Origin: Bacteroidaceae bacterium
GTDB lineage: Bacteria > Bacteroidota > Bacteroidia > Bacteroidales > Bacteroidaceae
Assembly: GCA_017534815.1 (NCBI GenBank)
Contig: JAFXVS010000074.1
Span: 1 to 46,771 of the forward strand
Length of the DNA: 46,771 bases
Direction of reading: 5' to 3'
A model generated the notes under the pieces. It was not told the origin of the DNA, did not search any database, and was given only the letters and a program-made list of their open reading frames with translations. Positions 4,966 through 35,025 of the stretch are shown here, piece by piece (the first letter of the stretch is position 1; each line of letters opens with the position of its first letter). The position numbers and the translations under genes were made by a program.

Positions 4966-4985
4966 TTATCAAATAAAGTATATAT

Positions 4986-7900
4986 ATGGAACTATCATAT
5001 AAAACAAGATATTGGCTTTTGTCATTGCTGATGCTGTTGTCTGTGACTGCGTGGTCACAGCAGAAGAATGTGCTCAGCATCTCTGACGCCAAGGTGTCGA
5101 TAGGAGACGCGCAACTGCCTGTCGCCATCGAGAATACCGATGAGATTGTGGCGGTTCAGTTTGATTTGACGCTGCCGTCCACCATCTCGGCTGGTACTGA
5201 GGCTGTAGTGACCAATCGCTGTGATGGTCATACCGTCATCATCCGTAACATAGAGGCGACACGTTACCGTGTGATGCTCTATAGTGATGACAATCGCCCA
5301 TTGATAGCACAACAGGGAACTGTACTCTATGTGCCTCTGAATATCCCACAAACAGTGGCAGATGGCAGCGAACTTCCTCTCGTCATCAGCAACGCCACAC
5401 TGACTGTGGCTTCGGGTGAGAATGTGCTGACAGAAACGAAAACAGGTAAACTCATCGTCTCGATGTTGCCCGATCTCACGGTGATGAACATTGCTCCAAG
5501 TGTGCAGGGTGATGCCGAAGCTCTGACCATCACACCAGGTGATCATTTGTCACTTTCTTGGCAGGTGCAGAATGTGGGTGAGGCAGCGACGAAGGGTGGC
5601 TGGAGTGAGCAAATCATGGTTGTGAACAAGCGCGGAACTGTGACCAAACTGATAGGTACTGTTTATCAGCAGGAGATACTTGCTGCAGGAGCTGTGATGA
5701 GCCGCCAGGCTGACATCATCGTACCACAGTTGCTTGGTCTCGAAGGCGATGCCTATGTGCAAGTACATATCGTCGCCACCAGTGAGACGGGAGAATCAAC
5801 GCTCGCTGCCGGTAACAACACTGCACAATCTGAGGATGTGTTCACGGTCAGCAAACGACTCTTTGTAGAACCGAATCCTATCCGTATTGTGGAGAACTCC
5901 ACATCACGCGTGGCCGTCAAGGTGAGCCGTAGTGGTGATTGGAATACCGAACAGACCTTTATGCTCAGCACCAATGGTGACACACGTGTCACGTTGCCTT
6001 CTCAGGTAACTATGCCTATAGGCCAGTCGGGTGCTATTGTCTATATGACGGTGAGAGACAACAGTGTGCTTGATGACGATGACATTGTGATGATCACAGC
6101 CAAAGGTAATGGTTATGCCGATGCCCAAGGGGAATTGACCATTGAGGATAATGAATACCCCAATCTCACATTGACTACATCGAAGTCGGCTGTGACTGAG
6201 GGTGAAACCTTCCAACTGACCGTCACGACGAGCCGAGTTCCCAAGGAACCCGTTGTTGTGACCCTTGCCAGTGAGAACGCCAAGCGCTTCACCTTCCCTC
6301 AGACTGTCACCATACCGGCAGGTGAGACATCGGTAACTGTGGATGTGGAGGCAGTGGATGATGAAGCACCTAGTCTGGAGTTGGTGAATGCTTTCACAGC
6401 ATCAGCCCTTAAGTATAATAAGGCTGAGGTCAACGTTGTCTTATATGACAATGACCTGCCAGTCCTCGAGCTGCAGCTTACCCCAACGACAGTTCAGGAA
6501 AGTGCTGGTGTGATGGCTATAGCTGGTGTGCTGCGCCGTACTACCAATACAAATAGCAAGATCACCGTTAAGTTGACTGACGATGCTGATGGTGGCCTCT
6601 ATATCGGTAATCGCACATTGGAATTGGCCAAAGGTACAGAGGAAGTCCACTTTAATTTCGGTCCTGTGGATAATGCCACCGTTGACGGTGACCGCACCTA
6701 TACCATCACGGCTGCTGTATGGTTGTCATCGTGCAGTTGTGGTGCCTCATCAAACGAATCGGCGGGTTATGTTACAGCTCAGGTGAAGGTACTTGACAAC
6801 GACGGTGCAGCCTTAAGCCTTTCCTCTTCGCAGAGTACGGTGAAGGAAGGAGGTACGACCTCGCTCACTGTGAGCCGCAACACTACCGACACCTCGTCAC
6901 CGCTCAATGTCACGCTCAGCAGTAACTATGAAGAAGGATTGACCTACCAGCATACGGTAACGATTCCCGCTGGACAGCAGTCGGTTATGGTAGAAGTGGC
7001 CTCGGCTGCTAATAGTGTGCAGGGTGACAGTCATACTGTTATCTTCACCGTACAGGCCGATGGATATGCTACCGGAACCTGCTATATGAATATGACAGAC
7101 CAGACAATGCCCGATGCCCAGATTACAGATTTGCGTGCTGACCGCACTCAAATAGAGGTGGGTGAGCAATTGTCTATTACTGTTATCGTAGCCAATGAGG
7201 GCGTGGCAGTCCTCCCTGCAGGAACAGTGGTGACACTAAATTTCAGCGGTACTCCTTCAAAGAAGATATTATACACGCTTGCTGATTTGGCGGTAGGCGA
7301 GACTGTAGAATTGACGGAAGAATTTGCTATAACATCTACAAGACCGAATAGCTACACCTTCAAGGCTACCGTCAATGCTGACAAGAATGTGAAGGAATTG
7401 AACTACAACAATAACACATCACAGGATTTGACTATCACATTGTTGCCTAATTTCACGGCAACCGTCAGCACAGACAAGGAGGTATATCGCCAAGGTGAGG
7501 CTATCACTATCAGCGGCCAGACCAGTGCTGGAGGCAAGAATGCCAATGTGGAGGTCTATTTTGTCAATGGTGGCATTCGCCAATCCATCACTGTTCAAGC
7601 CGATGCTGAAGGAAACTTTGAAACAACTTATCAGCCTTACAACCGTCAAGCAGGTCATTTCACTGTGGGTGCATGCTATCCAGGAACGGGCGAGAGTGAC
7701 GGCTCAGCAGAAATTGATGTCTATGGTCTTCGTTTGTCAAGCTATTTTACTACTCACGACCTTAGCTTGGGTGATGAGGCTCAGGGAACAATTGTTGTGG
7801 AGAACCCTGGTCAATTGCCTCAGACTGGTATGTCCATCGTGCAGCAAGCTGAGACGGGGGATAATAAATTGACGTTGGGTGCGATTTCGTCCATCGGGGC

Positions 7901-10900
7901 AGACGGCCAGATAACAATACCTTATACACTGAAGGGCAATGCTTTGACAGAAGGTAATGACTGGCAGCAGATACCGCTGCATATCACATCTGCAGAGGGT
8001 AGTGTTGTTGATTATAACATTTATTACTATGTTCGTCCGCTTAAAGGAAAACTGAAAGCCAGTCAAACACGCATAGAGACCACTGTTACAAAGGGTGCTC
8101 CACGTGATTATCAGTTGCAGATTAGTAATATTGGACGTGGAGAAACCGGTCGTATCACTTTATCTGTGCCTTCATGGGTGGAATCATTGACACCCACAGA
8201 GATGTCCTCGCTCAGTCAGGGTGATACGGCAACTGTCGTACTGCGACTGAAGACCACGGATGATATGCAGTTGAATGTTCCAGTGACTGGACAGATAGGC
8301 ATTAACTGCGCCCAAGGCGATGGCGTTCCTATTAGTTTGAAAGTGACACCTGTATCGGAGGCCACAGGACATCTGCTCATTGACGTAGTGGACGAGTATT
8401 CTTACTACGCTGAAGGCAAACCGCATGTTGAGGGTGCCAAAGTATTGGTGAAGCATCCAACGACGGGTAAAGTCGTGGCGCAAGGTCAGACCGCTTCCGA
8501 TGGCCGCTATTCCGTAGAACTGCCTGAGGGTTGGTACACTGTTAGCATCAGCGCTGAAAAGCATCAAAGTTACCAGACAACCCTTGAAGTGGCACCTGGT
8601 CAGCAGATAGGCAAAGAAATTTTCCTCACTTATGAAGCCGTTTCCTATACATGGGAGGTGGTAGAGACAGAGGTGGAAGATGAATACGAGATTGAGACCG
8701 TGGTGAAGTACGAGACTAATGTGCCGAAGCCGGTTGTTATCATCACACTGCCAGAGGAAATGCCACAAGTGGGTGAAGTAATCCCTGTCATTATTACCAA
8801 TAAGGGATTGATTGGTGCAAATGATGTGGATGTGACCATGTCTGTCACAGAGGGACTGGATGTGGAATGGCTCACAGATCCCACATTGACCGTTCTCGCA
8901 CCTCAGCAAAGCGCTATATTCTATGCAGTACTGAAAGACAATGAAGCACATTCAGCGCGCAGAAGAGCGCCAGGTGAGGGACTCGGTTTTTGCCTCCATC
9001 TTTACTCTACGTTGTTGGGTCACTATGTTTGTGGTGATTATGAAGAGACAATCGCTGTTGAGACCTCTCGTGCTTGGGGTGATTGTCTTAAGACAATGGC
9101 TACCAGTGGAAGTGGTGGAAGTGGTGGAAGCGGTGGAAGTGGCGGAGGAAATTGGAGTGGTGGCCCCAATCCTGTAAATCATCCGGTTAGTACTCCAAAT
9201 AGTAACACTAATAGCTCGTATGATGGTTCTATGAGTATGGTTCCCAATCTCTCGCCAACGGCTAAGTTCTGTCATGAAAAGGAACTGGTGTTATTAAAGA
9301 ATTTAGCTAAAATCGCAACACCCGAAAGAGGTAATTGTGGCGACACACAAATTGGCGGTTATGTTTTGATTCCTGATTCGGGTCCTGAATATGATGTGTG
9401 GGGTGTGGCAGCTGATGGTGTATCGAAGGTGCGCATTAGGTTCAAAGAAGGTGTCAAAAATGTGATACCATTTGATGAAAGATGTGGTAATCCTCACTGG
9501 ACGATAAAGGAAGGAATTGGTACATTGGAAAATGCTGATGGTTGGGAAAATGTGGTTTTTAAGGCTCCAGACGACTTTCCTGGTGATGAACATAGCAGTT
9601 CATATACTGTGCATGCGGTTCTTGAATATATGGTTAATGGCTCTAATTCGAATGGTGATTTTGTCATGAAGAGGGATACATCTGAAGTCCCCATTAAGAT
9701 AACCCGTGCTCCTTTAGCATTGATACATGGCCTTGCATCTAGTCCAGAAACATGGGAGAAATTTGCAGGATATCTCACTAATGCAGAAAATGCAATCAAT
9801 ATGTATGATGATTATCAAGTTTTGTGTGTGGACTATAGCGACACCCACTTTCGCCATTTCGCAACAAATGAAAATGTCGTGAATAATAGTATACAACAGC
9901 TTATTGCTAAGTATATGTCAAAAGGTATTGTGGCAAACAAGGCTGATCTTATAGGGCATAGTATGGGTGGCATTCTTGCAAGATGGCATGTTCAATATGT
10001 CCCAAAGGGGAACACCAACGTTCATAAGATTATTACTGTGAATACGCCTCACTCGGGAAGCCCAGTTGCAAATTTTATGAATGAATTGTCACAGACTAGT
10101 GCATTAAATATATTGAAAGATGTTATAACAGGTAACATGTTGCATGGTGGTTACGATGGTGCAATTCAAGACCTTGCAATCGGTTCTGAAGCAACAGACT
10201 ATTATCTAAATGATTCATATAAAGAAAACAGTGAGATACTCGCTAAGATGAATAACATCCCGATTCATGCTGTGACCTCTTATATCGAAGGAAAAGTTCA
10301 AGATGCATATTATGCTGCCATTGCATTAGGCACAAATGAGGCAATAGAAGATTTCTTAACCATATATGATGCATTTGTTAATCCTGTGGAGGCATGGGAA
10401 CTCCCCAAGGCATCGTATGATTTGTTTAAGGCCATAACTGAGGTCGGAGGTGAATTGGACTATGGAATAGCATTGGCTGATGCATTAGCTCCTGGTGATT
10501 GTATTGTTCCTTATGAAAGCCAGACGGGTGGGCTCCCATTGGGTTGTGTGCAGCCTTTCTCTGGGGGATTGGAAATATGTCATACGGCGATGACAGGAAA
10601 TCATGAAGTATGGGAACATCTTATTACGATGCTTAATGCATCTGTGATGGATTCAAGATTTTGTAAGACAGGTTTTCACCCAACAAAATTAGAATTTATG
10701 AAAAGGGATATGAGTCGAAGATTAGGTGATGAGGCTGAACCACAAATAACCCAAGACGTGTCTTTAGACATTCAACTGAGTATAAATGAGGGTGAACTTC
10801 ATGTACGAGTAGATGATTTGAAAGGGGGTAGTATGAACAATCTTAAAGTTCTTGTAAGATTTGATGGATATGACGAATTAAAAGCTGGAAACGATTTCAT

Positions 10901-13900
10901 CTTGTCTATCCCCTCCACTCATCAAGGTGTGATTAAGGTGTATGCTTGTTGTGAGACTTTTGTCGGAGAATCTGTTTGTGATAGTGCATTCATTGATGTA
11001 CAAAAAAGCCAGACATCGCCTGTTGAGTTGAAATGTATACGCCTTTGTCAAATAGACATGAGTACTCCTCTTGCTGTCACCCTTGTATGTACTTGGGCTG
11101 ATGGATCCGTGACCCATGTTATTCCTGATGCGGCTACATTCACAGACAATTTGGCTACCTATTCCAATGGCAAAATCACAGGTCTGCATAGTGGTAGTGG
11201 TACGGCTACGTTCACCTATCAGGGCTTGACATGCGAAGCACCATTCACGGTCTATAACTTTGGACAGAGTGATGATGAAGAGGGCAGCACGTCCGTTTGT
11301 TCTACTGTGTCTCTGAAGTTGTCACAGACGATGACGATGACTCGTCAGGCCTTCCGTGGTACACTTACCGTATTTAATGGTAATGAATCTGCCGCCATGC
11401 GGGATGTGAAATTGGATTTGAAGGTGACGAACTCTGTTACAGGAGAAGTGGCCACCTCTCATGAGTTCCAGATTAATGCGGAATCTTTGGACGGGTTTAA
11501 TGGTGAACTGGCATTGGATGCAGGTTGGACGCTCGCCGGTAATGCTACGGGTACAGCCACTATCCTGTTTATCCCGACGAAGTATGCTGCTCCGACGGAA
11601 CCTGTGGAGTGGAGTTTTGGCGGTACATTCAGTTACATTGATCCATTTACGGGAACGGAGGTGACTCGTGAACTCTATCCCGTCACCCTCACCGTGAAGC
11701 CTTCTCCAGAGCTTGACCTCACCTACTTCATGCAGCGTGATGTCTATGGTGACGACCCATTGACGCTTGATGTGGTCGAGGCGATGGAACCTGCTGAGTT
11801 TGCACTCCTTGTTAATAACAAGGGTTATGGGGATGCGACGAATGTGAAGATGTTGACACAGCAGCCAGAGATCACGGAGAATGAGAAGGGATTGCTCATC
11901 GATTTCGAACTCATCAGCTCTCAGGTGAATGGTAGTGATGCAACCTTGTCGTTCGGTCAAAGCATCGCCAATGACTTCGGTACGATTCCGGCTCACTCGC
12001 AGTTGTACGCTCAGTGGTGGTTGACGAGTACGCTGCTCGGACATTTCACCGAGTATGATGTGCAGGCCACCCATGTGACCAGCTATGGTAATCCAGACCT
12101 GTCGTTACTTGATCAAGTGACCATCCATGAACTCATCCACGGCTTTGACATGCCGAATGGAAGCTTGATTGGTGGTCCTGAAAAGGGTAGGGCATTCCTG
12201 GTGAATGACATCGTGGATGCCAATGATCTGCCAGACAAACTCTATTTCACCAATGGAGATACGGCTGGCGTGGTCATTGCCACGACGGCGAAGATTGAGC
12301 GGACATCGCCTACTACTTGTCTGCTGACTGTCACTCCGTCGGCTCCAGGTTGGAACTATGGCAATCTGCTCGACCCGACTTATGGCTATGCGGAATTAAA
12401 GAGCATCGTGCGCCAGAGTGACGGTCAGGAGTTGGGCAATACCCGATTCTGGCAGACCGACCGCACATTGCGTGATGGCAAGGATTGGCTCTATGAATAC
12501 CGCCTGCACTTTGTTGACGAATTCAATACGGGTGCGCCAGTGACATATCTGCTGACCTTCGATCCTGTGCCCGAAGAGGTGCTGGAGGTGGCTTCCATCG
12601 GCGTCGTACCTGAAGAAGGAAAGATTGCTGAAGAGCCTATCGAAACATTGACGGTGACCTTCAACAAGCCTGTTGATGCCTCGACCTTCACCAGCGATGA
12701 CATCACACTCGCTGTGCAGGGAGCTAAGCAGGATGTCAGCACGATTGGCATCAGCACCAACGACAACAAGTCTTTCGTGTTGGATATGAAGACCGTCAAC
12801 CCGCAACTTGGTAACGGTTACTACACGCTGACTGTGCAAACGGCAGGCATCACTGATTGGGAAGGCTTCCAAGGTAGGGCAGGCAAGCAGGTTGGCTGGA
12901 TTATGTTCCGTGGTGGACTGGTACAGCTGCTGACGTCTGCTTGGCCAAAGAACGCTGGTTCGGTGATGCGCAAACCTGATGAAGCCGCTGGTTCACGCCG
13001 TCTGGCTCAGACCAATGAAGACATCAATGACAACACTGCCGAATATGGTTCTACGGTAACTTTGGTGGCTGTGGCTGAGGGGGGTTATGAATTCACCAAT
13101 TGGACGCTCAATGGTGAGGTGGTATCGACCGATGTGGAGTTGGAGACGACCGCTTTGGGCGACATGAATGTGGTGGCCAACTTCGCAAAGAAAAAGTATA
13201 TGGTCAATGTCACAGTCGAAGGCACAGGCGGCACCACGGCCGGTACAGCTACAGGTATCTATGAGTATGAGACTGAAATCAGTGTGACGGCTGTTCCTGA
13301 CGAAGACTTTGACTTGGAGAACTGGACAGTCAATGGCAAGGCAGTTGAGGGAAGTGGCAATATGTTGACGGTGACAGTGGACAAGCCGCTTGATGTTCAG
13401 GCTTCCTTCCTGCAGGAGTATTTCTACCAGAGGGTCACACTGGATAAGGGTTGGAACTGGATTTCAGCTTACTTGAGTGAACCTTGGGCTGTGACAGACT
13501 GGAGCCGATACACGAACCGTATCATGGGTCAGACGGATGAGGCCGTCAACGATCCAGAAACAGGAATGACGGGACGCCTCTCCGAACTGATGTCAGGACA
13601 AGCCTACAAGGTGGAGGCGAACAGCCGCTTCACGAACACGCTGCGTGGTCATCTGTACAATACGGCAGTGAGCCCCATCAATCTGCGTAAGGGTTGGAAC
13701 TGGGTGGCATTCCCATACATGAATGGAGCCACGATGGATGTCGTGACGACAGCAGAAGAGGGTGACTTCATCGCATCGCAGAAAGGCTTTGCCGAGTATG
13801 TGGACGGTGCATGGATAGGAACACTCGATATGTTCATCCCAGGTGAAGGCTACCTCTATAAGTCAACATCCGAGAAGAGCTTGGCGTTTGACAAGTCCAA

Positions 13901-14408
13901 ACTCATCGACGACAGTTCTTACGGAGAAACTGATGCGGACATCACCGAACAGGATGTGGATATTCGTCGCTACCCCAGCACGATGAACATGACGGCACGC
14001 ATCTGTCGTGATGAATCAGAAGAGTTGGGCGAAGGCTACAGCATCTATGCGATGGTGGGCGATGAACTGCGTGGTGTCAGTCAGCATGTGTCAGGCAAGC
14101 ATTACTTGACGGTCTATGGCGACGAAGCTGCTGACGTGACGTTCTTCGTGGAGTCTGCTGAAACTGGTGAAACCTTTGAGGCTCACGAGACACTGGCGTT
14201 CCGAGATGACGTGGTGGGCAGCAGCAAGAGTCCGTTCACCATCAATATTGGTGAAGTGACCGGCATCGACTCGATCAGCAGTGATGGCAAGATGACCATC
14301 TATACCGTCGAGGGTGTGCTTGTCAGTCAAGAAGCTACGATGAAGACGCTGCTCAGTTTGCCGAAGGGTGTTTACATCATCAACGGTAAAAAGCGATTCA
14401 TAAGGTAA
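4986..14408 (+). CDS. 3140-aa secreted giant protein with embedded alpha/beta-hydrolase (lipase-like) domain
   Basis: After the signal peptide (about 1-25) come a cohesin-like domain (27-160), a CARDB domain (162-288), four Calx-beta-like repeats (about 289-704), a second CARDB (707-818), more Ig-like modules and a carboxypeptidase-regulatory-like domain (1128-1215). A Gly/Ser linker (1375-1393) precedes a hydrolase at about 1572-1892. This has LIHGLASSPETW (oxyanion-type loop), nucleophile elbow GHSMGG with Ser1659, a likely acid Asp1838 in PGDCIVPY, and His1866 or His1873. The rest is Big_2-like, SbsA-like Ig and two InlB-like repeats (2685-2808), two GWNW motifs (2822, 2902) and a C-terminal GVYIINGKK motif. 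The family pattern implies an extracellular esterase or lipase carried on an adhesive stalk. The substrate is unknown. The DNA around the hydrolase is visibly more AT-rich than the flanking modules. Confidence 0.85.
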   Translation: MELSYKTRYWLLSLLMLLSVTAWSQQKNVLSISDAKVSIGDAQLPVAIENTDEIVAVQFDLTLPSTISAGTEAVVTNRCDGHTVIIRNIEATRYRVMLYSDDNRPLIAQQGTVLYVPLNIPQTVADGSELPLVISNATLTVASGENVLTETKTGKLIVSMLPDLTVMNIAPSVQGDAEALTITPGDHLSLSWQVQNVGEAATKGGWSEQIMVVNKRGTVTKLIGTVYQQEILAAGAVMSRQADIIVPQLLGLEGDAYVQVHIVATSETGESTLAAGNNTAQSEDVFTVSKRLFVEPNPIRIVENSTSRVAVKVSRSGDWNTEQTFMLSTNGDTRVTLPSQVTMPIGQSGAIVYMTVRDNSVLDDDDIVMITAKGNGYADAQGELTIEDNEYPNLTLTTSKSAVTEGETFQLTVTTSRVPKEPVVVTLASENAKRFTFPQTVTIPAGETSVTVDVEAVDDEAPSLELVNAFTASALKYNKAEVNVVLYDNDLPVLELQLTPTTVQESAGVMAIAGVLRRTTNTNSKITVKLTDDADGGLYIGNRTLELAKGTEEVHFNFGPVDNATVDGDRTYTITAAVWLSSCSCGASSNESAGYVTAQVKVLDNDGAALSLSSSQSTVKEGGTTSLTVSRNTTDTSSPLNVTLSSNYEEGLTYQHTVTIPAGQQSVMVEVASAANSVQGDSHTVIFTVQADGYATGTCYMNMTDQTMPDAQITDLRADRTQIEVGEQLSITVIVANEGVAVLPAGTVVTLNFSGTPSKKILYTLADLAVGETVELTEEFAITSTRPNSYTFKATVNADKNVKELNYNNNTSQDLTITLLPNFTATVSTDKEVYRQGEAITISGQTSAGGKNANVEVYFVNGGIRQSITVQADAEGNFETTYQPYNRQAGHFTVGACYPGTGESDGSAEIDVYGLRLSSYFTTHDLSLGDEAQGTIVVENPGQLPQTGMSIVQQAETGDNKLTLGAISSIGADGQITIPYTLKGNALTEGNDWQQIPLHITSAEGSVVDYNIYYYVRPLKGKLKASQTRIETTVTKGAPRDYQLQISNIGRGETGRITLSVPSWVESLTPTEMSSLSQGDTATVVLRLKTTDDMQLNVPVTGQIGINCAQGDGVPISLKVTPVSEATGHLLIDVVDEYSYYAEGKPHVEGAKVLVKHPTTGKVVAQGQTASDGRYSVELPEGWYTVSISAEKHQSYQTTLEVAPGQQIGKEIFLTYEAVSYTWEVVETEVEDEYEIETVVKYETNVPKPVVIITLPEEMPQVGEVIPVIITNKGLIGANDVDVTMSVTEGLDVEWLTDPTLTVLAPQQSAIFYAVLKDNEAHSARRRAPGEGLGFCLHLYSTLLGHYVCGDYEETIAVETSRAWGDCLKTMATSGSGGSGGSGGSGGGNWSGGPNPVNHPVSTPNSNTNSSYDGSMSMVPNLSPTAKFCHEKELVLLKNLAKIATPERGNCGDTQIGGYVLIPDSGPEYDVWGVAADGVSKVRIRFKEGVKNVIPFDERCGNPHWTIKEGIGTLENADGWENVVFKAPDDFPGDEHSSSYTVHAVLEYMVNGSNSNGDFVMKRDTSEVPIKITRAPLALIHGLASSPETWEKFAGYLTNAENAINMYDDYQVLCVDYSDTHFRHFATNENVVNNSIQQLIAKYMSKGIVANKADLIGHSMGGILARWHVQYVPKGNTNVHKIITVNTPHSGSPVANFMNELSQTSALNILKDVITGNMLHGGYDGAIQDLAIGSEATDYYLNDSYKENSEILAKMNNIPIHAVTSYIEGKVQDAYYAAIALGTNEAIEDFLTIYDAFVNPVEAWELPKASYDLFKAITEVGGELDYGIALADALAPGDCIVPYESQTGGLPLGCVQPFSGGLEICHTAMTGNHEVWEHLITMLNASVMDSRFCKTGFHPTKLEFMKRDMSRRLGDEAEPQITQDVSLDIQLSINEGELHVRVDDLKGGSMNNLKVLVRFDGYDELKAGNDFILSIPSTHQGVIKVYACCETFVGESVCDSAFIDVQKSQTSPVELKCIRLCQIDMSTPLAVTLVCTWADGSVTHVIPDAATFTDNLATYSNGKITGLHSGSGTATFTYQGLTCEAPFTVYNFGQSDDEEGSTSVCSTVSLKLSQTMTMTRQAFRGTLTVFNGNESAAMRDVKLDLKVTNSVTGEVATSHEFQINAESLDGFNGELALDAGWTLAGNATGTATILFIPTKYAAPTEPVEWSFGGTFSYIDPFTGTEVTRELYPVTLTVKPSPELDLTYFMQRDVYGDDPLTLDVVEAMEPAEFALLVNNKGYGDATNVKMLTQQPEITENEKGLLIDFELISSQVNGSDATLSFGQSIANDFGTIPAHSQLYAQWWLTSTLLGHFTEYDVQATHVTSYGNPDLSLLDQVTIHELIHGFDMPNGSLIGGPEKGRAFLVNDIVDANDLPDKLYFTNGDTAGVVIATTAKIERTSPTTCLLTVTPSAPGWNYGNLLDPTYGYAELKSIVRQSDGQELGNTRFWQTDRTLRDGKDWLYEYRLHFVDEFNTGAPVTYLLTFDPVPEEVLEVASIGVVPEEGKIAEEPIETLTVTFNKPVDASTFTSDDITLAVQGAKQDVSTIGISTNDNKSFVLDMKTVNPQLGNGYYTLTVQTAGITDWEGFQGRAGKQVGWIMFRGGLVQLLTSAWPKNAGSVMRKPDEAAGSRRLAQTNEDINDNTAEYGSTVTLVAVAEGGYEFTNWTLNGEVVSTDVELETTALGDMNVVANFAKKKYMVNVTVEGTGGTTAGTATGIYEYETEISVTAVPDEDFDLENWTVNGKAVEGSGNMLTVTVDKPLDVQASFLQEYFYQRVTLDKGWNWISAYLSEPWAVTDWSRYTNRIMGQTDEAVNDPETGMTGRLSELMSGQAYKVEANSRFTNTLRGHLYNTAVSPINLRKGWNWVAFPYMNGATMDVVTTAEEGDFIASQKGFAEYVDGAWIGTLDMFIPGEGYLYKSTSEKSLAFDKSKLIDDSSYGETDADITEQDVDIRRYPSTMNMTARICRDESEELGEGYSIYAMVGDELRGVSQHVSGKHYLTVYGDEAADVTFFVESAETGETFEAHETLAFRDDVVGSSKSPFTINIGEVTGIDSISSDGKMTIYTVEGVLVSQEATMKTLLSLPKGVYIINGKKRFIR

Positions 14409-30235: not shown

Positions 30236-30775
30236 CTAATCCGAAAGGACGAAGATGGTCTTGCTTGAGCCTCGGCTCTCCTCGATGGCAAGGCCATCTT
30301 CTTTGATGCGGATAACGCTCACCGAAACAGGGAAGTCGCCATTCTTTGGATAGACATCATAGGCGCTGTTGCCACGCTTCTCCAAGAAGTAGTGCGACAG
30401 CTTTCCCTTCTTGGTGGGGTCGGCAAACGTCGCATCAAATTGGCCTTCGCCATCTTCCGATGCCATGAAAGTCCACACGCCTCCATCCTCATTCACGTAG
30501 GGGCTGTCGAATTGGGGCATCACGTCCTCCGTGGCTTCCTCTTCCTCCTCACCCTCATAGGCATCCAAAGCATTTTTGACAATGACGCTGCCAATGGGAG
30601 GTAAGTTGCTGTCTGACTCCTCTTTAGGTTCTGGCTCCTCCTTGCCGATTTCGTCCAGTTGGGAGAGTGCCTTCTCGAGGTCATCACAAGCCGTGAACAC
30701 CATCGTCGATGAAATCAGCATCAGCGCCAAAAACATCGTCGTCAATTTAGTAAAAGATTGTCTTTTCTTTCTCAT
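30236..30775 (-). CDS. Acidic lipoprotein of unknown function
   Basis: The signal peptide ends in lipobox VFTAC (Cys30). A mature acidic linker follows, rich in Glu/Asp/Pro (KEEPEPKEESD, EGEEEEEATED). The C-terminal half (about 85-179) looks like one small beta-domain (GGVWTFMASEDGEGQFDATF, KLSHYFLEKRGNSAYDVYPKNGDFPVSVSVIRI). I do not recognise the family. It converges on ino1 with only 13 bases between the stops, and no terminator hairpin was seen there. Confidence 0.75.
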   Translation of the reverse strand: MRKKRQSFTKLTTMFLALMLISSTMVFTACDDLEKALSQLDEIGKEEPEPKEESDSNLPPIGSVIVKNALDAYEGEEEEEATEDVMPQFDSPYVNEDGGVWTFMASEDGEGQFDATFADPTKKGKLSHYFLEKRGNSAYDVYPKNGDFPVSVSVIRIKEDGLAIEESRGSSKTIFVLSD

Positions 30776-30816
30776 GTTCTTGTCTTTTTAGGGGTTGTAC
30801 AATCGTTTATGCGTGG

Positions 30817-30848
30817 CAAAGGTAAGCCTTTTCATCGACACCTGCAAA
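30817..30848 (-). promoter_or_regulatory. Promoter of the acidic lipoprotein gene
   Basis: On the minus strand TTTG (30848-30845) and TACCTTTG (30824-30817) are 20 bases apart. The leader is about 40 bases. Confidence 0.75.
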
Positions 30849-30889
30849 TTTTAGAGACAAAATTTTTGTCGGACAAAACAAATACTAAT

Positions 30890-30920
30890 TTGCCAAATAT
30901 CCCGCCTCTGCCGAGAAATA
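30890..30920 (+). repeat. Imperfect 31-bp direct repeat, left copy
   Basis: It begins TTGCCAAATATCCCGCCTCT and matches 33344-33374 at 29 of 31 positions. The two copies bracket the VirE-like gene and its palindromic flanks, 2.45 kb apart. Confidence 0.7.
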
Positions 30921-31033
30921 GTTGTGCCTTCAGAGAAGTGCGTCCGTCTGACGTACTTCTTTTTTATTTCTGGTCGCATTCGCTCAAAATCTCCCAAAAA
31001 TCTAAGGCAAAATCTTCAAAAAATGAGAAAGGG

Positions 31034-31074
31034 AGTTTCTCGGTAACAAACCACCAGTTTGTCGGTAAGAAACT
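31034..31074. repeat. Nested palindrome with symmetrical CGGTA internal loops
   Basis: Outer arms AGTTTCT/AGAAACT and inner arms ACAAAC/GTTTGT are each perfect. Both sides are separated by the same pentamer CGGTA, and the apical loop is CACCA. Its regularity suggests selection for a folded DNA or RNA form, or for protein binding. The neighbouring 30921-31033 and 31075-31160 stretches hold no convincing gene. Confidence 0.75.
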
Positions 31075-31160
31075 ATCCTTTTCCTTACGAGTAACTATCC
31101 GCTTGCTGCTTGGGGTTAAAACCAACTTAAAATCACGTGAACCGTCAGCTCGGCGGAGCC

Positions 31161-31190
31161 AATTAACTCGATTCATCAAACGAGTTAATT
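31161..31190. repeat. Perfect inverted repeat AATTAACTCG/CGAGTTAATT
   Basis: Ten-base arms flank a ten-base loop. A further GAGTTAATT half-site follows at about 31204. There is no T-run, so it is not a simple terminator. Confidence 0.65.
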
Positions 31191-31492
31191 CAATCGATGA
31201 TTTGAGTTAATTCACGGTCTGGGACGGGTCATTTTCTACGACGCGTTCCAGAACTTTTCAATATGAGTCAATGATATTGCCATAGTCAGCGTTTCTTGCT
31301 ACATACCTTTTTACTGTGTGCGCACACAGAAATAAAAACACAAAAAATGTAAAAAAACATTTCAGATTATTTGGTGGATAAATTGAAAATTCTTTAATTT
31401 GCAACGTCTTCGCGCCGAAGTCACTTTTATGTGACGGGCAATAAATTTTAATCCGGATTTCTCTGAAACCTTCCAAGTAGGTTACGTCATAA

Positions 31493-31590
31493 AACACCTC
31501 ACATACACACATAGTAGGCCTTGAGCCTCGATGTACACTGGGTTGAAGGGACGTGAGGTGTTGCTCAAACACCTCACAAACACCTCACGT
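31493..31590. repeat. AACACCTCAC repeat cluster, 3' side of the VirE-like gene
   Basis: AACACCTCAC occurs at 31493, 31568 and 31579. ACGTGAGGTGTT (31551-31562) is exactly inverted as AACACCTCACGT (31579-31590). The palindrome lies ten bases beyond the VirE stop codon and may double as a transcription end. The same decamer in opposite orientation clusters upstream of the gene. Confidence 0.75.
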
Positions 31591-31599
31591 CCAACCTCA

Positions 31600-32811
31600 T
31601 CATGCAGCAACCAAAGGAACGACCCTGTAGAAAGCGACGTGGCTATGATTGGTGCTCTCGAACCCAAGTTCTTTCATGGCCAAGCCCAAGTGGATCTTGG
31701 TGCTGTGATTGATCTTCACCAAAGGATATTCACGCTGAATCACCTGCAACAGCTGGAGGCTGTTCATTGATTTTGAAACTTCCCCGTCCATAGGTCTTCT
31801 GAAGCAGACCTTCACAATCTCCCCTAAATCCTTCTGTTCCATATACCCCAGATTGATTTCCTGAATGCGAGCCACCTCCACATTGTTGAACCAATAAGGC
31901 GCCTTCACCACCTTCAACTCGTGCAGCACCTGCGCATACAGCTGGTCATAGTCGATGTCACCCGTGTTGTCGATGAACATCCCCTGTGGAATGGTCAGGC
32001 AGATGTAACGTCGGCTGCCTGTGGCATCTGTCAAAGGATGCGGATTGTTGGTCGATGCCACAAACGAGGCATAACGGGGTCTGTCTTCCTGCGAAGCGCC
32101 ATAGATGGGGCGTCCGTTCACCTTGCTCTTCGAGAGCGTCTGCTTCAGGGCTGGATGCTGGCTGGGGCGGATGGCATCCAACTCATCGAGGTTCACCAGG
32201 AGGTTGTTGGTCAATGCCATCTCCTTGTCGAACTTGTTCGAGAGGTTCAGGTGATCCAGATAATACTGGCGCAGATGTGGGGGCAGCAGTCGCAGCAGGA
32301 AGGTGGTCTTTCCACATCCCTGCGGCCCGATGAGGGTCGGCACACATTCGTTGCCATGCTGGGTGTCCATCTGCAACCAGTGAGCCACCATCGAGCGCAT
32401 CCAGATGGACAGGAACGAAAACTGCTCTGTGCTGAGATTGGGGATGCGGCTGAACAACTTGGCTACGTGGTTCTGCCCGTCCCAAGCGGGAAGTCCATCC
32501 AAGTACTCCTTCACGGGGTCGAAACGCTCGACCTCCTCAGAGTTGATGTACTCCATAATGTCCGTCTTGGGACTCCCGTTTTCGCCAACGCCCTCACGTT
32601 TGGCACGCAGGATGATGCTGTTGAGCGCCTGCTGTGTCAGCGTGCGGAACTCAGCCTTCTCTCCATCCTTAGACTTGTTGACAAACTCCACTTTCCCGTT
32701 CAACACATTGTTGCGGAAAAGATAATTCTCTTGAAGGAACAGCTCCACGTCGAGCATTCCCTCCTGTGAGGCAGGTACAGCCTCTCCATTAATGTGTATT
32801 AATTCTTTCAT
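31600..32811 (-). CDS. Stand-alone VirE/VapE-type P-loop ATPase (putative replication helicase)
   Basis: The ATG at 32811 gives 403 residues; the longer frame runs over the promoter. The VirE-family core shows SEEVERFDPVKEYLDGLPAWDG (about 91-112), Walker A GPQGCGKTT (162-170), Walker B-like LLVNLDE (204-210), sensor segment ASTNN (252-256) and GSRR (265-268). VirE/VapE proteins are helicase-like ATPases of phage satellites, integrative elements and Bacteroidetes mobile regions, usually fused to or beside a primase domain. Here only the ATPase part and a short N-terminal region remain, with no integrase, primase or mobilisation gene alongside. The dense flanking repeats suggest it acts on its own surrounding DNA; that is inference. 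Confidence 0.85.
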   Translation of the reverse strand: MKELIHINGEAVPASQEGMLDVELFLQENYLFRNNVLNGKVEFVNKSKDGEKAEFRTLTQQALNSIILRAKREGVGENGSPKTDIMEYINSEEVERFDPVKEYLDGLPAWDGQNHVAKLFSRIPNLSTEQFSFLSIWMRSMVAHWLQMDTQHGNECVPTLIGPQGCGKTTFLLRLLPPHLRQYYLDHLNLSNKFDKEMALTNNLLVNLDELDAIRPSQHPALKQTLSKSKVNGRPIYGASQEDRPRYASFVASTNNPHPLTDATGSRRYICLTIPQGMFIDNTGDIDYDQLYAQVLHELKVVKAPYWFNNVEVARIQEINLGYMEQKDLGEIVKVCFRRPMDGEVSKSMNSLQLLQVIQREYPLVKINHSTKIHLGLAMKELGFESTNHSHVAFYRVVPLVAA

Positions 32812-32881
32812 GATTTTAGATAAATTTAAATAATGTATTAGAGGTACAGGCATGTGTTTCTCATGGCCTGTAATTTGACTA

Positions 32882-32913
32882 CAAAGGTACAACATTTTTC
32901 TGTCATATGCAAA
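32882..32913 (-). promoter_or_regulatory. Promoter of the VirE-like gene
   Basis: On the minus strand TTTG (32913-32910) and TACCTTTG (32889-32882) are 20 bases apart. The leader is about 65 bases. An intact promoter argues that the gene is expressed. Confidence 0.75.
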
Positions 32914-32984
32914 TAAAAGTCCATTATATTTCATAAAAAAACAAAAAAATGACATTGTTTCATCAGCCCATCTTTGAGATGTGG

Positions 32985-33088
32985 GGTCTATGTGAGGTGT
33001 TTGTGAGGTCTATGTGAGGTGTTCGGGCAATACCTCACATGCTCAACAGATTGAAATGCAAATCATTAAACCGCCTTATGTGAGGTGT
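32985..33088. repeat. GTGAGGTGTT iteron-like cluster, 5' side of the VirE-like gene
   Basis: GGTCTATGTGAGGTGTT occurs twice, at 32985 and 33007, exactly 22 bases apart. A partial GTGAGGT lies between them. An inverted CCTCAC follows at about 33033 and another GTGAGGTGT at about 33080. These copies face opposite to most copies on the far side of the gene. Confidence 0.75.
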
Positions 33089-33175
33089 CGGCACTTTTTG
33101 CTTCAAAATTCTTCTATCTGATTATCTGAAGATGTTTCGCCCCCAAGACGCCCCTCAACCCCTTTCCCAAAGATT

Positions 33176-33254
33176 GCCGACGGCTCTCTTGCCTTTTGCC
33201 GTCGGCTCTTTGATGCTTTGCCGTCGGCAAACTTGAAAATTCTCAAGAGAATTT
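33176..33254. repeat. GCCGACGGC/GCCGTCGGC repeats and AAATTCTC hairpin
   Basis: GCCGACGGC at about 33176 is inverted by GCCGTCGGC at about 33198 and again at about 33220, giving two alternative stems. AAATTCTC/GAGAATTT follows with a two-base loop at about 33237-33254. Confidence 0.65.
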
Positions 33255-33257
33255 CTG

Positions 33258-33320
33258 AACGATACGACGTTTCAATCCCCTTGATACGCCGTATCACTGT
33301 CCACGAAACGGCGTATCGTT
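33258..33320. repeat. Large nested palindrome (AACGATACG...CGTATCGTT)
   Basis: Sixteen-base arms AACGATACGACGTTTC (33258-33273) and GAAACGGCGTATCGTT (33305-33320) match at 15 of 16 positions. Between them sits a second palindrome, GATACG C CGTATC, at 33283-33295. Confidence 0.75.
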
Positions 33321-33343
33321 TATGCGTGAATAAGGTACCCTTA

Positions 33344-33374
33344 TTGCCAAATAACCCGCCTCTGCTGAGAAATA
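33344..33374 (+). repeat. Imperfect 31-bp direct repeat, right copy
   Basis: The partner of 30890-30920, with two differences. Just upstream the sequence ATCGTTTATGCGTG (33315-33328) is also shared with the left side (about 30802-30816), but at a different spacing. Confidence 0.7.
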
Positions 33375-33400
33375 ACCCAGCGTTATTGGAGAATAACTTT

Positions 33401-33465
33401 TCCCGCTCCGACCGCGAAGGGCTCCCGCTCCGACCGGCAGGGCTTCCTGCTCCGACCAGGAAAGC
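33401..33465 (+). repeat. Three-unit tandem repeat, TCCCGCTCCGACC...
   Basis: Units start at 33401, 33423 and 33444, giving periods of 22 and 21 bases. The third unit is diverged (TTCCTGCTCCGACC). There is no credible reading frame. Confidence 0.65.
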
Positions 33466-33501
33466 CTCTTGCCTCTTGCGGCATAACTCTGATTTTGGGA
33501 A

Positions 33502-33541
33502 TCGGAGGAACATCGGAGGTAATTCGGAGGAACATCGGAGG
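33502..33541 (+). repeat. Two-unit 22-bp-period repeat, TCGGAGGAACATCGGAGG
   Basis: Two identical 18-base copies start 22 bases apart. Each copy itself contains TCGGAGG twice. The 33542-33644 stretch after it holds nothing else recognisable before the MATE promoter. Confidence 0.7.
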
Positions 33542-33644
33542 CACTCCTTGGGTGCGTTTTTGGTGTTCAAATGAAAAAACCTTCTTTGTTGCCGTAGGAT
33601 TTATTCAATTGAGGATAATTGTTGAATATGTCATTTTTTTGTCG

Positions 33645-33652
33645 TACCTTTG
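33645..33652 (+). promoter_or_regulatory. -7 box of the MATE transporter gene
   Basis: TACCTTTG in the extended context TCGTACCTTTGCA. The leader is about 30 bases. Confidence 0.7.
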
Positions 33653-33687
33653 CAGCCGAAAATAAAAATCAATCGAATATACAGACG

Positions 33688-35025
33688 ATGGATACAGAAG
33701 GAAAGAGGGCTTTCAATGTTGAGTTCTGGCGTTTTCTGTGGTCGAGCATCCTGATTGCGCTGTCAGCTTGCTTGGGTAATGTGGTCGATTCAATCATTGT
33801 GGGTAACCTGATTGGCGAGGATGGCGTGAGTGCCATCAACCTGACCAAGCCCGTCACGCAGTTTATGTTTACCGTCAGCATGTTGCTCTCTACCGGAGCG
33901 GGCATGTTGGTGGGCATGCAGCTCGGCAAAAAGGACTATGCCCGTGCTGCTTCCATCTATACCATTTCCACCATCGGCAGTTTTGTCTTTGGGTTGTTGA
34001 TGACTCTCTGCGGTTTCTTCCTCACCCAACCCATCACGGGTTGGCTGTGTTCCAACGAGCAACTCTTCGGAGGCACCAACGACTATCTCTTCCCCTTGCT
34101 GGTGGGTGCGCCTACCTATATGATATCTTGGGCGTTGGCCACGATGGTCGGAGTGGATGGCAGCCCGCGTCTGGTTTCCATTGCCATCCTGATAGATAAT
34201 GCCGTCAACTTGTTCTGCGATATCATTTTCATCCAATGGTTGGGCTGGGGCATCGAGGGTTCTTCTACGGCGACCGTCGTCGGTCACATTGTGGGCATCG
34301 CCATCATGTGCTGGCATTTCCGTTATCCCAATCATCACATCAAGCTATGTGGGGGTAATGATCATGTGTGGGACACGCTGAGGCAGATGGTGTCCCAAGG
34401 TGCGCCTCTGGCACTGGCATCCATCAGTTTGACGGCGTTGCTTTACTGTGCCAACACGATTGTATTGTCTTCATTGGGTCGTATAGGTATCTTTGCCTTC
34501 TCCGTCTGCATGAACATTCTTTATATCTACAACCTCTTCCTCTCTGGCACCTGCCGCACCATCCAGTCGCTTGGAGCCATCCAAGTGGGTAAGGGGGATA
34601 ATGAGACGTTCCGACTCGTCATCAGCAAGTCGTTCCGTTTCATCACGATTGCCATGTTGCTCACCTGTGCAACCATCTGGCTGTTCCCAGAGGCGATTAC
34701 AAGATTCTTTGGTGCCGATGAAGAAAACCTGATTGGGGAAGGTGTGCGCGCATTGCGTATCTTCGCCTTCAGTTTCATTCCTTTCTGCTACATCTACGTG
34801 CTGATGGTGGTCTATAAGCTTTATGGTCACCACCACATGGCGCTATTCATCTCGTTGGCGCTCTCGCTGATGGTGATTCCAGCACTGTGGGTGATGGCGA
34901 AACTATCGCCAGACAATCTCTGGTACAGCTACCTCATCGCTTATGCCATCGAAGCGTTGCTCATCATACTCTTCCATCGCTTAGGGCATTTGAAGTTTGA
35001 ACTCAAGGCGGAACACAAGAATTAG
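33688..35025 (+). CDS. MATE-family multidrug/cation antiporter
   Basis: An integral membrane protein of 445 residues with about twelve helices in two similar halves. The N-terminal half shows LIALSACLGNVVDSIIVGNLIGEDGVSAINLTKPV and LLSTGAGMLVGMQLGKKD, typical of the MATE/DinF fold, and the second half repeats the pattern (SLGRIGIFAFSVCMNILYIYNLFLSGTCRTIQSLGAIQVGKGD). Such proteins export drugs or metabolites using sodium or proton gradients. The substrate is unknown. The start is the first ATG after the predicted transcription start; the frame extends upstream across the promoter. Confidence 0.88.
   Translation: MDTEGKRAFNVEFWRFLWSSILIALSACLGNVVDSIIVGNLIGEDGVSAINLTKPVTQFMFTVSMLLSTGAGMLVGMQLGKKDYARAASIYTISTIGSFVFGLLMTLCGFFLTQPITGWLCSNEQLFGGTNDYLFPLLVGAPTYMISWALATMVGVDGSPRLVSIAILIDNAVNLFCDIIFIQWLGWGIEGSSTATVVGHIVGIAIMCWHFRYPNHHIKLCGGNDHVWDTLRQMVSQGAPLALASISLTALLYCANTIVLSSLGRIGIFAFSVCMNILYIYNLFLSGTCRTIQSLGAIQVGKGDNETFRLVISKSFRFITIAMLLTCATIWLFPEAITRFFGADEENLIGEGVRALRIFAFSFIPFCYIYVLMVVYKLYGHHHMALFISLALSLMVIPALWVMAKLSPDNLWYSYLIAYAIEALLIILFHRLGHLKFELKAEHKN

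What the first reader, a model, noticed from the sequence alone, without database searches (positions are those of the whole stretch)
30890..33541. Lone VirE-like ATPase in a cassette of palindromes, iteron-like arrays and flanking direct repeats
Seen: one intact, promoter-bearing ATPase gene; at least five palindromes; repeat clusters on both sides; a 29/31-matching direct repeat bracketing 2.45 kb. All of this sits between ordinary genes, with no integrase, transposase, primase or mobilisation gene. Known: VirE/VapE proteins are replication helicases of satellites and integrative elements. Inference: this is either a minimal non-autonomous element mobilised or replicated in trans, or a domesticated replicon module. 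I know of no described system with this exact layout.
Basis: partly seen in the sequence, partly recalled or inferred. Interest (0 to 1): 0.75.

Follow-up and report, generated by a model that had tools for sequence, protein, structure and literature searches.

The report
Helicase gene between inverted iteron ends
A single helicase gene in a gut-type bacterium sits between two inverted, hairpin-forming end repeats that its protein probably recognises, and gene-less pairs of such ends are scattered through related genomes, so it looks like a mobile element without any recognisable cutting enzyme.

Summary
The gene, palindromes and iterons are real. The 31-bp bracketing repeat is a dispersed genomic repeat and bounds nothing. 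The meaningful boundaries are two inverted modules beside the gene (31503-31577 +, 33012-33087 -): outer iteron, hairpin, inverted iteron pair, tandem iterons. A scan of public genomes found 562 stretches encoding a relative (capped list). Of the best 80 loci, 54 carry inward-facing modules close on both sides. None of 12 window-flank proteins lies near the gene in 20 fetched same-genus stretches. Iterons agree between both ends of an element but differ between elements. They track the protein's C-terminal DUF3874 domain (66 elements, partial r 0.52, 0/2000 permutations), peaking at residues 373-397, not the ATPase or N-terminus; upstream iterons alone agree. Gene-less inverted module pairs are dispersed: 23 of 27 stretches inspected in one genome. 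No nuclease, integrase or transposase was recognised in the element. Best reading: an initiator-helicase element that reads its own ends, analogous to REPtrons and SaPI rep-ori modules but a member of neither. Movement chemistry, target duplication and empty sites are not shown. The structure prediction did not finish.

The parts
31492..33092 (.). proposed element, outermost iteron to outermost iteron (~1.6 kb); ends uncertain by some tens of bp
   Evidence: inverted modules; in three pairs of near-identical relatives four of six ends lose similarity at or within about 40 bp of the outermost iteron, one runs about 100 bp into shared flanking repeat, one is truncated
31503..31577 (+). left terminal module: spacer, hairpin A with core CGATGTACACTGGG, inverted iteron pair (hairpin B)
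   Evidence: covariance model R1, 60.6 bits, E 1.4e-14; this stretch is one of the 49 rows R1 was built from
31492..31508 (-). outermost left iteron (AACACCTCACATACAC)
   Evidence: the repeat finder D2/I6/I18
31566..31594 (-). inner left tandem iterons, 11-bp period
31600..32811 (-). VirE/VapE-like (BT4734/BF3469-type, short form) AAA+ helicase gene, 403 aa
   Evidence: Pfam VapE-like_dom 1.4e-32, DUF5906 6.3e-9, DUF3874 1.2e-6
31852..32499 (-). VapE-like AAA+ domain, aa 105-320
31603..31824 (-). C-terminal domain (DUF3874), aa 330-403
31621..31695 (-). aa 373-397, the stretch whose divergence tracks iteron sequence; top columns 393, 392, 369, 391, 374
32882..32913 (-). promoter TTTG-N20-TAnnTTTG
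   Evidence: L001 2780-2811 = window 32882-32913
32980..33023 (+). inner right tandem iterons, 11-bp period
33012..33087 (-). right terminal module, hairpin B intact, hairpin A core degenerate
   Evidence: R1 30.0 bits, E 1.8e-6; not among the rows R1 was built from
30890..30920 (+). copy of a dispersed genomic repeat (not an element boundary)
33344..33374 (+). second copy of the same dispersed repeat
30948..31212 (.). left mosaic of palindromic repeats (30948-31021 and 31032-31111 recur beside a module elsewhere in the genome)
33104..33541 (.). right mosaic of palindromic/tandem repeats (33104-33487 recurs at 87.5% beside a module pair elsewhere in the genome)

Best explanation
The locus is one copy of a family of short mobile elements. 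Each consists of one gene for a D5/VapE-type initiator helicase between two inverted terminal modules. The protein's C-terminal domain (DUF3874, winged-helix-like by its sequence pattern) recognises the iterons in both of its own modules; the AAA+ part then opens or unwinds the ends. I infer that this lets host replication copy the element or its ends, and that the copies are re-inserted without an element-encoded nuclease. The same protein could act on gene-less module pairs, which explains the dispersed copies. Shown by sequence: inverted modules, different sites, gene-less copies, iteron/DUF3874 co-variation, purifying selection. Inferred: DNA binding, unwinding, replication, insertion. The window's copy may be weakened, because the core of its right module is degenerate. 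My confidence that this is a self-recognising mobile element is about 0.8; in the replicative helicase mechanism about 0.4.
For: Two inverted modules flank the gene. Of 80 relatives, 54 have a + module within 1.2 kb upstream and a - module within 400 bp downstream, 14 have one and 12 none. Inverted-repeat score between the two flanks: median 42.6 against 10.8 in 364 mismatched pairs, 39 of 74 loci above the control 99th percentile. Hairpin B: 46 of 72 unselected modules score >=9 against 3 of 720 shuffles. None of 12 window-flank proteins (E<=1e-8) near the gene in 20 fetched same-genus stretches of 4-19 kb, one with a 92% identical protein. Gene-less copies: 23 of 27 HUN156 stretches have two modules facing inward within about 200-415 bp. 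Modules in 18 of 21 VirE-positive genomes against 1 of 13 VirE-negative. Iteron distance follows DUF3874 distance: r 0.536, partial on ATPase 0.522, 0/2000; N-terminus 0.016. Upstream iterons alone: r 0.521 with the C-terminus, 0.107 with the adjacent N-terminus. dN/dS about 0.02-0.15 in the core in 15 pairs. For initiator helicases of staphylococcal elements, C-terminal recognition of iterons next to the gene is reported (PMC7581432, passages).
Against: No direct evidence of movement: no empty site, no target-site duplication, no extrachromosomal form. No enzyme in the element is known to cut or join DNA. The dispersed copies lie inside larger mosaic repeats whose other parts have no shown link to the gene, and one pair of near-identical elements at different sites also shares about 100 bp of flanking repeat (L124/L131 upstream). 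The own-genome copies have a different iteron (GGTAGGTGTT) from the window's gene. Same-site copies are kept between sister species, as for a resident gene. 12 of 80 relatives show no module, 3 of 21 VirE-positive genomes none, and G005 has modules without a found gene. The permutation test does not fully remove relatedness, and no structure model was obtained.
Confidence: 0.6

Rival explanations
1. Trans-mobilised element: a transposase encoded elsewhere (for example a Y1/HUH enzyme of the RAYT or IS200 type) recognises the hairpin modules and moves them; the VirE gene is a passenger or an auxiliary factor.
For: No nuclease recognised in the element; hairpin modules, inverted pairs and mosaic clusters resemble REP/BIME organisation (PMC6006769 passages). 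Six of 14 module-bearing genomes have a Y1_Tnp match at E<=1e-3, five above the family's cut-off, among them the genome with most module hits, HUN156.
Against: No Y1_Tnp match in the other 8 of 14, including three with 43, 35 and 31 module hits (draft genomes, so absence is not proof). Iterons co-vary with the VirE C-terminus, which a foreign transposase would not require. Other transposase families were not searched.
Confidence: 0.2
2. Regulatory or replicon relic: the iterons are operators or an origin of the helicase, kept for the host or left from a satellite; spread of gene and modules is by ordinary recombination between repeats.
For: Initiator helicases of SaPIs use iterons next to their gene as origin (PMC7581432 passages); same-site retention and purifying selection; shared flanking repeats could serve recombination.
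Against: Two inverted copies at both ends, gene-less inverted pairs at many places, and relatives at unrelated sites go beyond an operator or a single origin.
Confidence: 0.15
3. Host-serving repeat system: module pairs act in chromosome organisation or transcript ends and the helicase is their domesticated maintenance factor.
For: Some copies lie directly behind terminators and in repeat mosaics (by eye); ORFs intact in 77 of 80 relatives, the other three being cut at a contig end (two) or lacking an ATG near the expected start (one).
Against: Patchy distribution (138 of 399 genomes of the family) and turnover of iteron type, with more than one type in a genome.
Confidence: 0.1
4. The first reader's cassette bounded by the 31-bp direct repeats.
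For: The two copies exist.
Against: The repeat is dispersed in the genome; among the relatives only some share it nearby (one same-genus locus), whereas the inverted modules recur.
Confidence: 0.03

Closest known systems
REPtron / RAYT (TnpA-REP) with REP and REPIN/BIME repeats
   Same: Gene flanked by inverted hairpin repeats; many gene-less repeat pairs in the genome; each gene has its own repeat family; mosaics (PMC6006769, passages).
   Different: The gene is a D5/VapE-type AAA+ helicase, not a Y1/HUH transposase; modules are ~100 bp with iterons instead of 21-65 nt with a GT[AG]G foot; [quoted passage not shown]
SaPI Rep-ori and SCCmec Cch2 initiator helicases (PMC7581432, passages); VapE structure 7pds
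   Same: Related helicase (7pds E 2.3e-15 over aa 79-294); iterons next to the gene; C-terminal domain as recogniser.
   Different: No integrase, packaging or primase gene in the element; iterons at both ends in inverted orientation; gene-less copies; not in a recognised island.
Insertion sequences with MITEs
   Same: Size, terminal inverted repeats, short gene-less derivatives.
   Different: No transposase recognised; no target-site duplication seen.
BrickBuilt MITE of Porphyromonas gingivalis (PMC4596501, passages)
   Same: Bacteroidales, repeat-bearing MITE found 19 times in a genome.
   Different: 23-nt tandem array; the paper's text has 0 occurrences of VirE and of helicase.
BT4734/BF3469 family proteins (long form) of Bacteroides
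   Same: VapE-like and, in most scanned, DUF3874 domains; 8 of 20 loci tested exceed the control 99th percentile for inverted flanks, five with clear iteron-bearing repeats.
   Different: Extra N-terminal BT4734-like domain; the other 12 loci do not exceed the control.

Membership tests
VapE/VirE-like (BT4734/BF3469-type) helicase proteins | VapE-like domain above curated cut-off | tested here: met
   113.3 bits against cut-off 25
VapE/VirE-like (BT4734/BF3469-type) helicase proteins | N-terminal BT4734-like domain (long form) | tested here: not met
   only VapE-like, DUF5906 and DUF3874 found; first 95 aa match no Pfam family
RAYT / REPtron | Y1/HUH transposase gene | tested here: not met
   no such domain in the protein; no Y1_Tnp match in the window's genome (draft, 75% complete)
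RAYT / REPtron | gene flanked by inverted hairpin repeats of a family dispersed in the genome | tested here: met
   own-genome copies of the module type, with another iteron; other genomes
Insertion sequence | transposase | tested here: not met
Insertion sequence | terminal inverted repeats | tested here: met
Insertion sequence | target-site duplication | tested here: inconclusive
   none seen by eye; ends not exact, no empty site
SaPI/PICI satellite | integrase and phage-dependence genes | tested here: not met
   no other gene recognised between the modules; the six neighbours scanned match dihydroorotase, glycosyltransferase, inositol-1-phosphate synthase, MATE, porin, or nothing
SaPI Rep-ori type initiator | C-terminal domain binds iterons next to its gene | tested here: inconclusive
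   co-variation only; binding not testable here
MITE (gene-less copies) | short copies with the same terminal inverted repeats | tested here: met
   in HUN156; but embedded in larger mosaic repeats
Phage or plasmid gene | close relatives on phages or plasmids | tested here: not met
   no place at 60% identity or more in the 469 phage and 78 plasmid records that match; IMG/VR matches 22-36%

The most novel reading that the evidence does not exclude
A nuclease-free transposon: an initiator helicase whose C-terminal domain reads the iterons of its own inverted ends spreads itself and gene-less end pairs by helicase-driven copying through host replication. New specificities arise by co-change (or exchange) of the DUF3874 recognition segment and the iterons, so that several types live side by side in one genome.
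Probability: 0.35. Interest if true: 0.93.

Novelty: categorically new. Interest (0 to 1): 0.82.

Why it matters
Described DNA transposons and REP systems rest on an enzyme that cuts DNA (established knowledge, recalled). A family built on a helicase alone, with gene-less derivatives, would be a new way for DNA to spread. It is common: one capped scan confirmed 562 stretches encoding some relative, and 138 of 399 genomes of the family carry a short or long form. It would help explain why lone 'virulence-associated E' genes are frequent in Bacteroidales, and it suggests a role for DUF3874. The match between residues about 366-397 and the 11-bp iteron gives a directly testable protein-DNA recognition code.

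Tried and rejected
31-bp repeat as boundary or target duplication: rejected. Same site in relatives: 38 of 45 genus genomes have ino1 at E<=1e-100, but of 20 stretches fetched around ino1 or the MATE gene (several cut short by contig ends) only one (G040, L092) has the 179-aa ORF next to ino1 and none joins it to the MATE gene, so no empty site could be read for the window. Empty sites for five relatives by joined flanks: single-sided neighbours were found (near typA, dnaK and ridA by my reading), no clean two-sided empty site. Empty copies of a HUN156 flank motif: of 26 motif copies, 23 lie within about 40 bp of a module listed or 79 and the other three within about 270 bp; no empty copy. Phage or plasmid origin of the short form: not supported. 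RNA family: no Rfam match at E<=1 in 30700-33700; the only match at gathering threshold in eight relatives' stretches was a tRNA. Linkage as the reason for the co-variation: tested with upstream iterons alone and not supported. Structure prediction was queued and unfinished, so no fold search was run; the winged-helix reading of DUF3874 is inference from the sequence pattern. A search of solved structures with the C-terminal 77 aa gave only insignificant hits. Literature: ten searches of an open-licence library without preprints. In the lists shown, no title or abstract joined VirE/VapE genes of Bacteroidales with iterons or inverted ends; most lists were long and shown only in part. DUF3874 is in 0 papers; BT4734 and BF3469 have 0 occurrences in the 25 of 75 papers listed, one of which (PMC10620215, listing only) holds 'VirE N-terminal domain' once.

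Rows dropped or chosen: alignment A3 took 48 of the 61 modules that passed a hairpin score of 6 (from 72 modules) plus the window's left module, so its 90.9% pairing in hairpin B is partly by selection; one search gives the unselected count. The co-variation test kept 65 of 80 relatives plus the window (module near the gene, few gaps, protein over 380 aa). The module count used the best 150 of 171 matches. Hit numbers include some overlapping opposite-strand hits of the palindromic hairpin, so places are fewer than hits.
Full report
WHAT IS THERE. The window is contig 8 of an unnamed 2.31-Mb draft genome (74.7% complete). The gene at 31600-32811(-) encodes 403 aa with a VapE-like AAA+ domain (aa 105-320, E 1.4e-32), DUF5906 (a match inside it) and DUF3874 at the C-terminus. 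The first 95 aa match no Pfam family. It is the only such gene found in this genome. A TTTG-N20-TAnnTTTG promoter lies at 32882-32913(-). Neighbours are ordinary: dihydroorotase, glycosyltransferase, inositol-1-phosphate synthase and a 179-aa ORF without family on one side, a MATE transporter and a porin-like gene on the other.

BOUNDARIES. The 31-bp direct repeat is one of several dispersed copies. The meaningful repeats are the GTGAGGTGTT iterons, found as this tandem only here in the genome and arranged as mirror images on the two sides. Compared with relatives they form one module, read from outside inwards: outer iteron(s), hairpin A with a core conserved in many elements (GCCGATGTACAAAGGG or CCTTTGTACAAAGG), a reversed and a forward iteron forming hairpin B, then tandem iterons towards the gene. 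Of 72 modules from the 36 loci with long inverted ends, 46 contain a hairpin scoring >=9 against 3 of 720 shuffles. A covariance model from 49 modules chosen for a clear hairpin B, whose rows include the window's left module, finds the left module (31503-31577 +, 60.6 bits) and, not being built on it, the right one (33012-33087 -, 30.0 bits, core degenerate). In that alignment hairpin B is paired in 90.9% of cells with changes on both sides in 11 of 12 pairs, partly by selection; hairpin A is weaker, 55.7%.

RELATIVES. A protein search finds matches in 16 of 45 genomes of the genus, the window's own included. A profile search finds 138 of 399 genomes of the family at E<=1e-60, short (~400 aa) and long (~700 aa) forms together. 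Phage, plasmid and viral-contig records hold only distant relatives. Of the 80, 77 have an intact ORF of at least 385 aa starting with ATG; two are cut at the contig end and one lacks an ATG near the expected start. In 74 loci with enough flank, the best inverted repeat between the two flanks scores 42.6 (median) against 10.8 for flanks taken from different loci (364 pairs), and 39 of 74 exceed the control 99th percentile, a control inflated by related elements. With the model, 54 of 80 have a + module within 1.2 kb upstream and a - module within 400 bp downstream, 14 have one and 12 none (without a distance limit 56, 12 and 12). Of the 24 loci incomplete, nine run into a contig edge within 400 bp on one side. 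Of the 12 without a module, nine still show an inverted repeat above the control 95th percentile (25.8) and two have no upstream flank.

DIFFERENT SITES. None of 12 proteins flanking the window gene is found (E<=1e-8) in 20 same-genus stretches of 4-19 kb around relatives, although the closest relative is 92% identical. In three pairs of near-identical elements judged to lie at different sites, four of six ends lose similarity at or within about 40 bp of the outermost iteron. The upstream end of L124/L131 runs about 100 bp further into a shared flanking repeat, and L174 has lost its upstream module next to the gene. Other pairs of sister species keep the element at the same site: L167/L171, L132/L135, L129/L133 and L146/L156 by similarity running far into the flanks; L168/L173, L147/L158 and L166/L172 probably. 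No target-site duplication was recognisable by eye, and no clean empty site was found. These are the main gaps.

GENE-LESS COPIES. Of 27 HUN156 stretches searched, 23 show two modules facing each other within about 200-415 bp, too close for a 1.2-kb gene. By eye their iterons match those of the resident elements. They sit in larger mosaic repeats, so they are MITE-like but not clean MITEs. RUG037 (G440) has 43 hits and P. communis (G263) 22. The window's own genome has 7 hits, its own two modules included. Two other sites (L315, L316) carry modules with a different iteron, GGTAGGTGTT, L316 as an inverted pair and L315 as one module, beside mosaic repeats that also flank the window's element. 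Among the 38 genomes, modules occur in 18 of 21 genomes known to carry the short gene (two of the 18 by marginal hits only) and in 1 of 13 without it (G005). Four genomes whose gene status had not been tested beforehand were left out of this comparison: two have hits (G450, 19; G477, one marginal) and two none; G450 proved to have a VirE gene of 54% identity between its modules.

SELF-RECOGNITION. Within an element the iterons agree (mean distance 0.059); between elements they differ (0.385). Over 66 elements the iteron distance correlates with the distance of the C-terminal domain (r 0.536; partial on the ATPase domain 0.522, 0 of 2000 label permutations as high), not with the N-terminus (partial 0.016) or, after the C-terminus, the ATPase (-0.128). 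The signal peaks at aa 373-397 (r 0.64), columns 393, 392, 369, 391 and 374. A first run with 28 elements gave 0.658, 0 of 5000. Upstream iterons alone, next to the N-terminus and about 1 kb or more from the C-terminal codons, give r 0.521 with the C-terminus and 0.107 with the N-terminus (53 elements); downstream iterons 0.554 and 0.141 (65 elements). Element pairs with iterons differing by at most one base share 73% of residues 366-397 (162 pairs) against 48% for pairs differing at four or more (1341 pairs), with similar ATPase identity, 84% against 81%. Examples from that list: GNVAF with GGTAGGTGTT, GNRPH or NNRPH with TATATGTT, QTYY with GGGTNNGTGTT, HSHVAY/F with GGGAGGTGTT, and the window's HSHVAF with CGTGAGGTGTT; there are exceptions. 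The permutation test does not fully model relatedness. The segment has the pattern of a recognition helix followed by a wing; this is inference, because the structure job did not finish.

SELECTION. In 15 pairs the first 328 residues evolve under constraint, dN/dS about 0.02-0.15 (for example dN 0.018, dS 0.295 for the window and L104). In some pairs (window/L104, L142/L149) the C-terminal part has a much higher dS as well, suggesting exchange of that segment between elements.

MECHANISM. For SaPI Rep and SCCmec Cch2, initiator helicases of the same broad class, recognition of iterons beside the gene by the C-terminal domain is reported (PMC7581432, passages read). Solved VapE (7pds) matches aa 79-294 here (E 2.3e-15). 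I therefore propose that DUF3874 binds the iterons of both ends, the AAA+ part opens the hairpin-bearing ends, and host replication makes copies that are joined elsewhere by host enzymes. The last two steps are inference. A transposase acting in trans remains possible. Y1/HUH enzymes are not a general answer: 8 of 14 module-bearing draft genomes show no Y1_Tnp match, among them genomes with 43, 35 and 31 hits, but 6 of 14 do, HUN156 among them. Long-form relatives in complete or near-complete genomes also show inverted ends in part: median score 16.1 against 11.0, 8 of 20 above the control 99th percentile of 16.8 (control maximum 48.8), with clear iteron-bearing cases L335, L338, L339, L344 and L347.

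COMPARISON AND NOVELTY. The layout works like a REPtron (gene, inverted flanking repeats, dispersed pairs, one repeat family per gene; PMC6006769, passages) and like a SaPI replication module, but fails a defining feature of each: no Y1/HUH enzyme, no integrase or satellite genes, no transposase. Ten searches of the open-licence library listed no description of it; lists were shown in part, and preprints and most subscription journals were not covered. I rate it categorically new with the caution that mobility is shown only by comparison, and the mechanism is not shown.

Noticed in passing
L167, L171, L245, L248: VirE-like genes of at least two kinds sit just after the dnaK gene in four genomes; L167/L171 lie directly behind its terminator. 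In four others (L246, L247, L249, L250) no such gene was found beside it in the fetched stretch: a possible insertion hot spot.
   Followed up: partly
window 32800-32870 (-) and upstream of the gene in many relatives: A conserved leader around (A/G)TGAGAAACAC...GCC lies between promoter and gene in many elements; it may be a leader peptide or RNA signal.
   Followed up: no
L042, L043, L047 N-terminal domains: The BT4734-like N-terminal domain of these long forms has LLEVNNL/LLEINNL/LLTIGGI where L048 has LCDIDHI, as if a primase-like active site had decayed (reading; the motif meaning is recalled).
   Followed up: no
window vs L104; L142 vs L149: The C-terminal segment has several-fold higher dS than the core, suggesting swapping of the recognition domain between elements.
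   Followed up: partly
L174 (Prevotella communis): This copy lacks its upstream module next to the gene while the near-identical L177 keeps iterons there.
   Followed up: partly
G005 (L322, L323): Six module hits in a genome with no VirE hit.
   Followed up: no
L289, L291, L293, L314 (G440): Other repeat families in RUG037 keep a core close to GCCGATGTACAAAGGG with quite different surroundings; possibly further element types.
   Followed up: no
window 433-14408: Two very long ORFs (1510 and 3140 aa) at the left end of the window, not examined.
   Followed up: no
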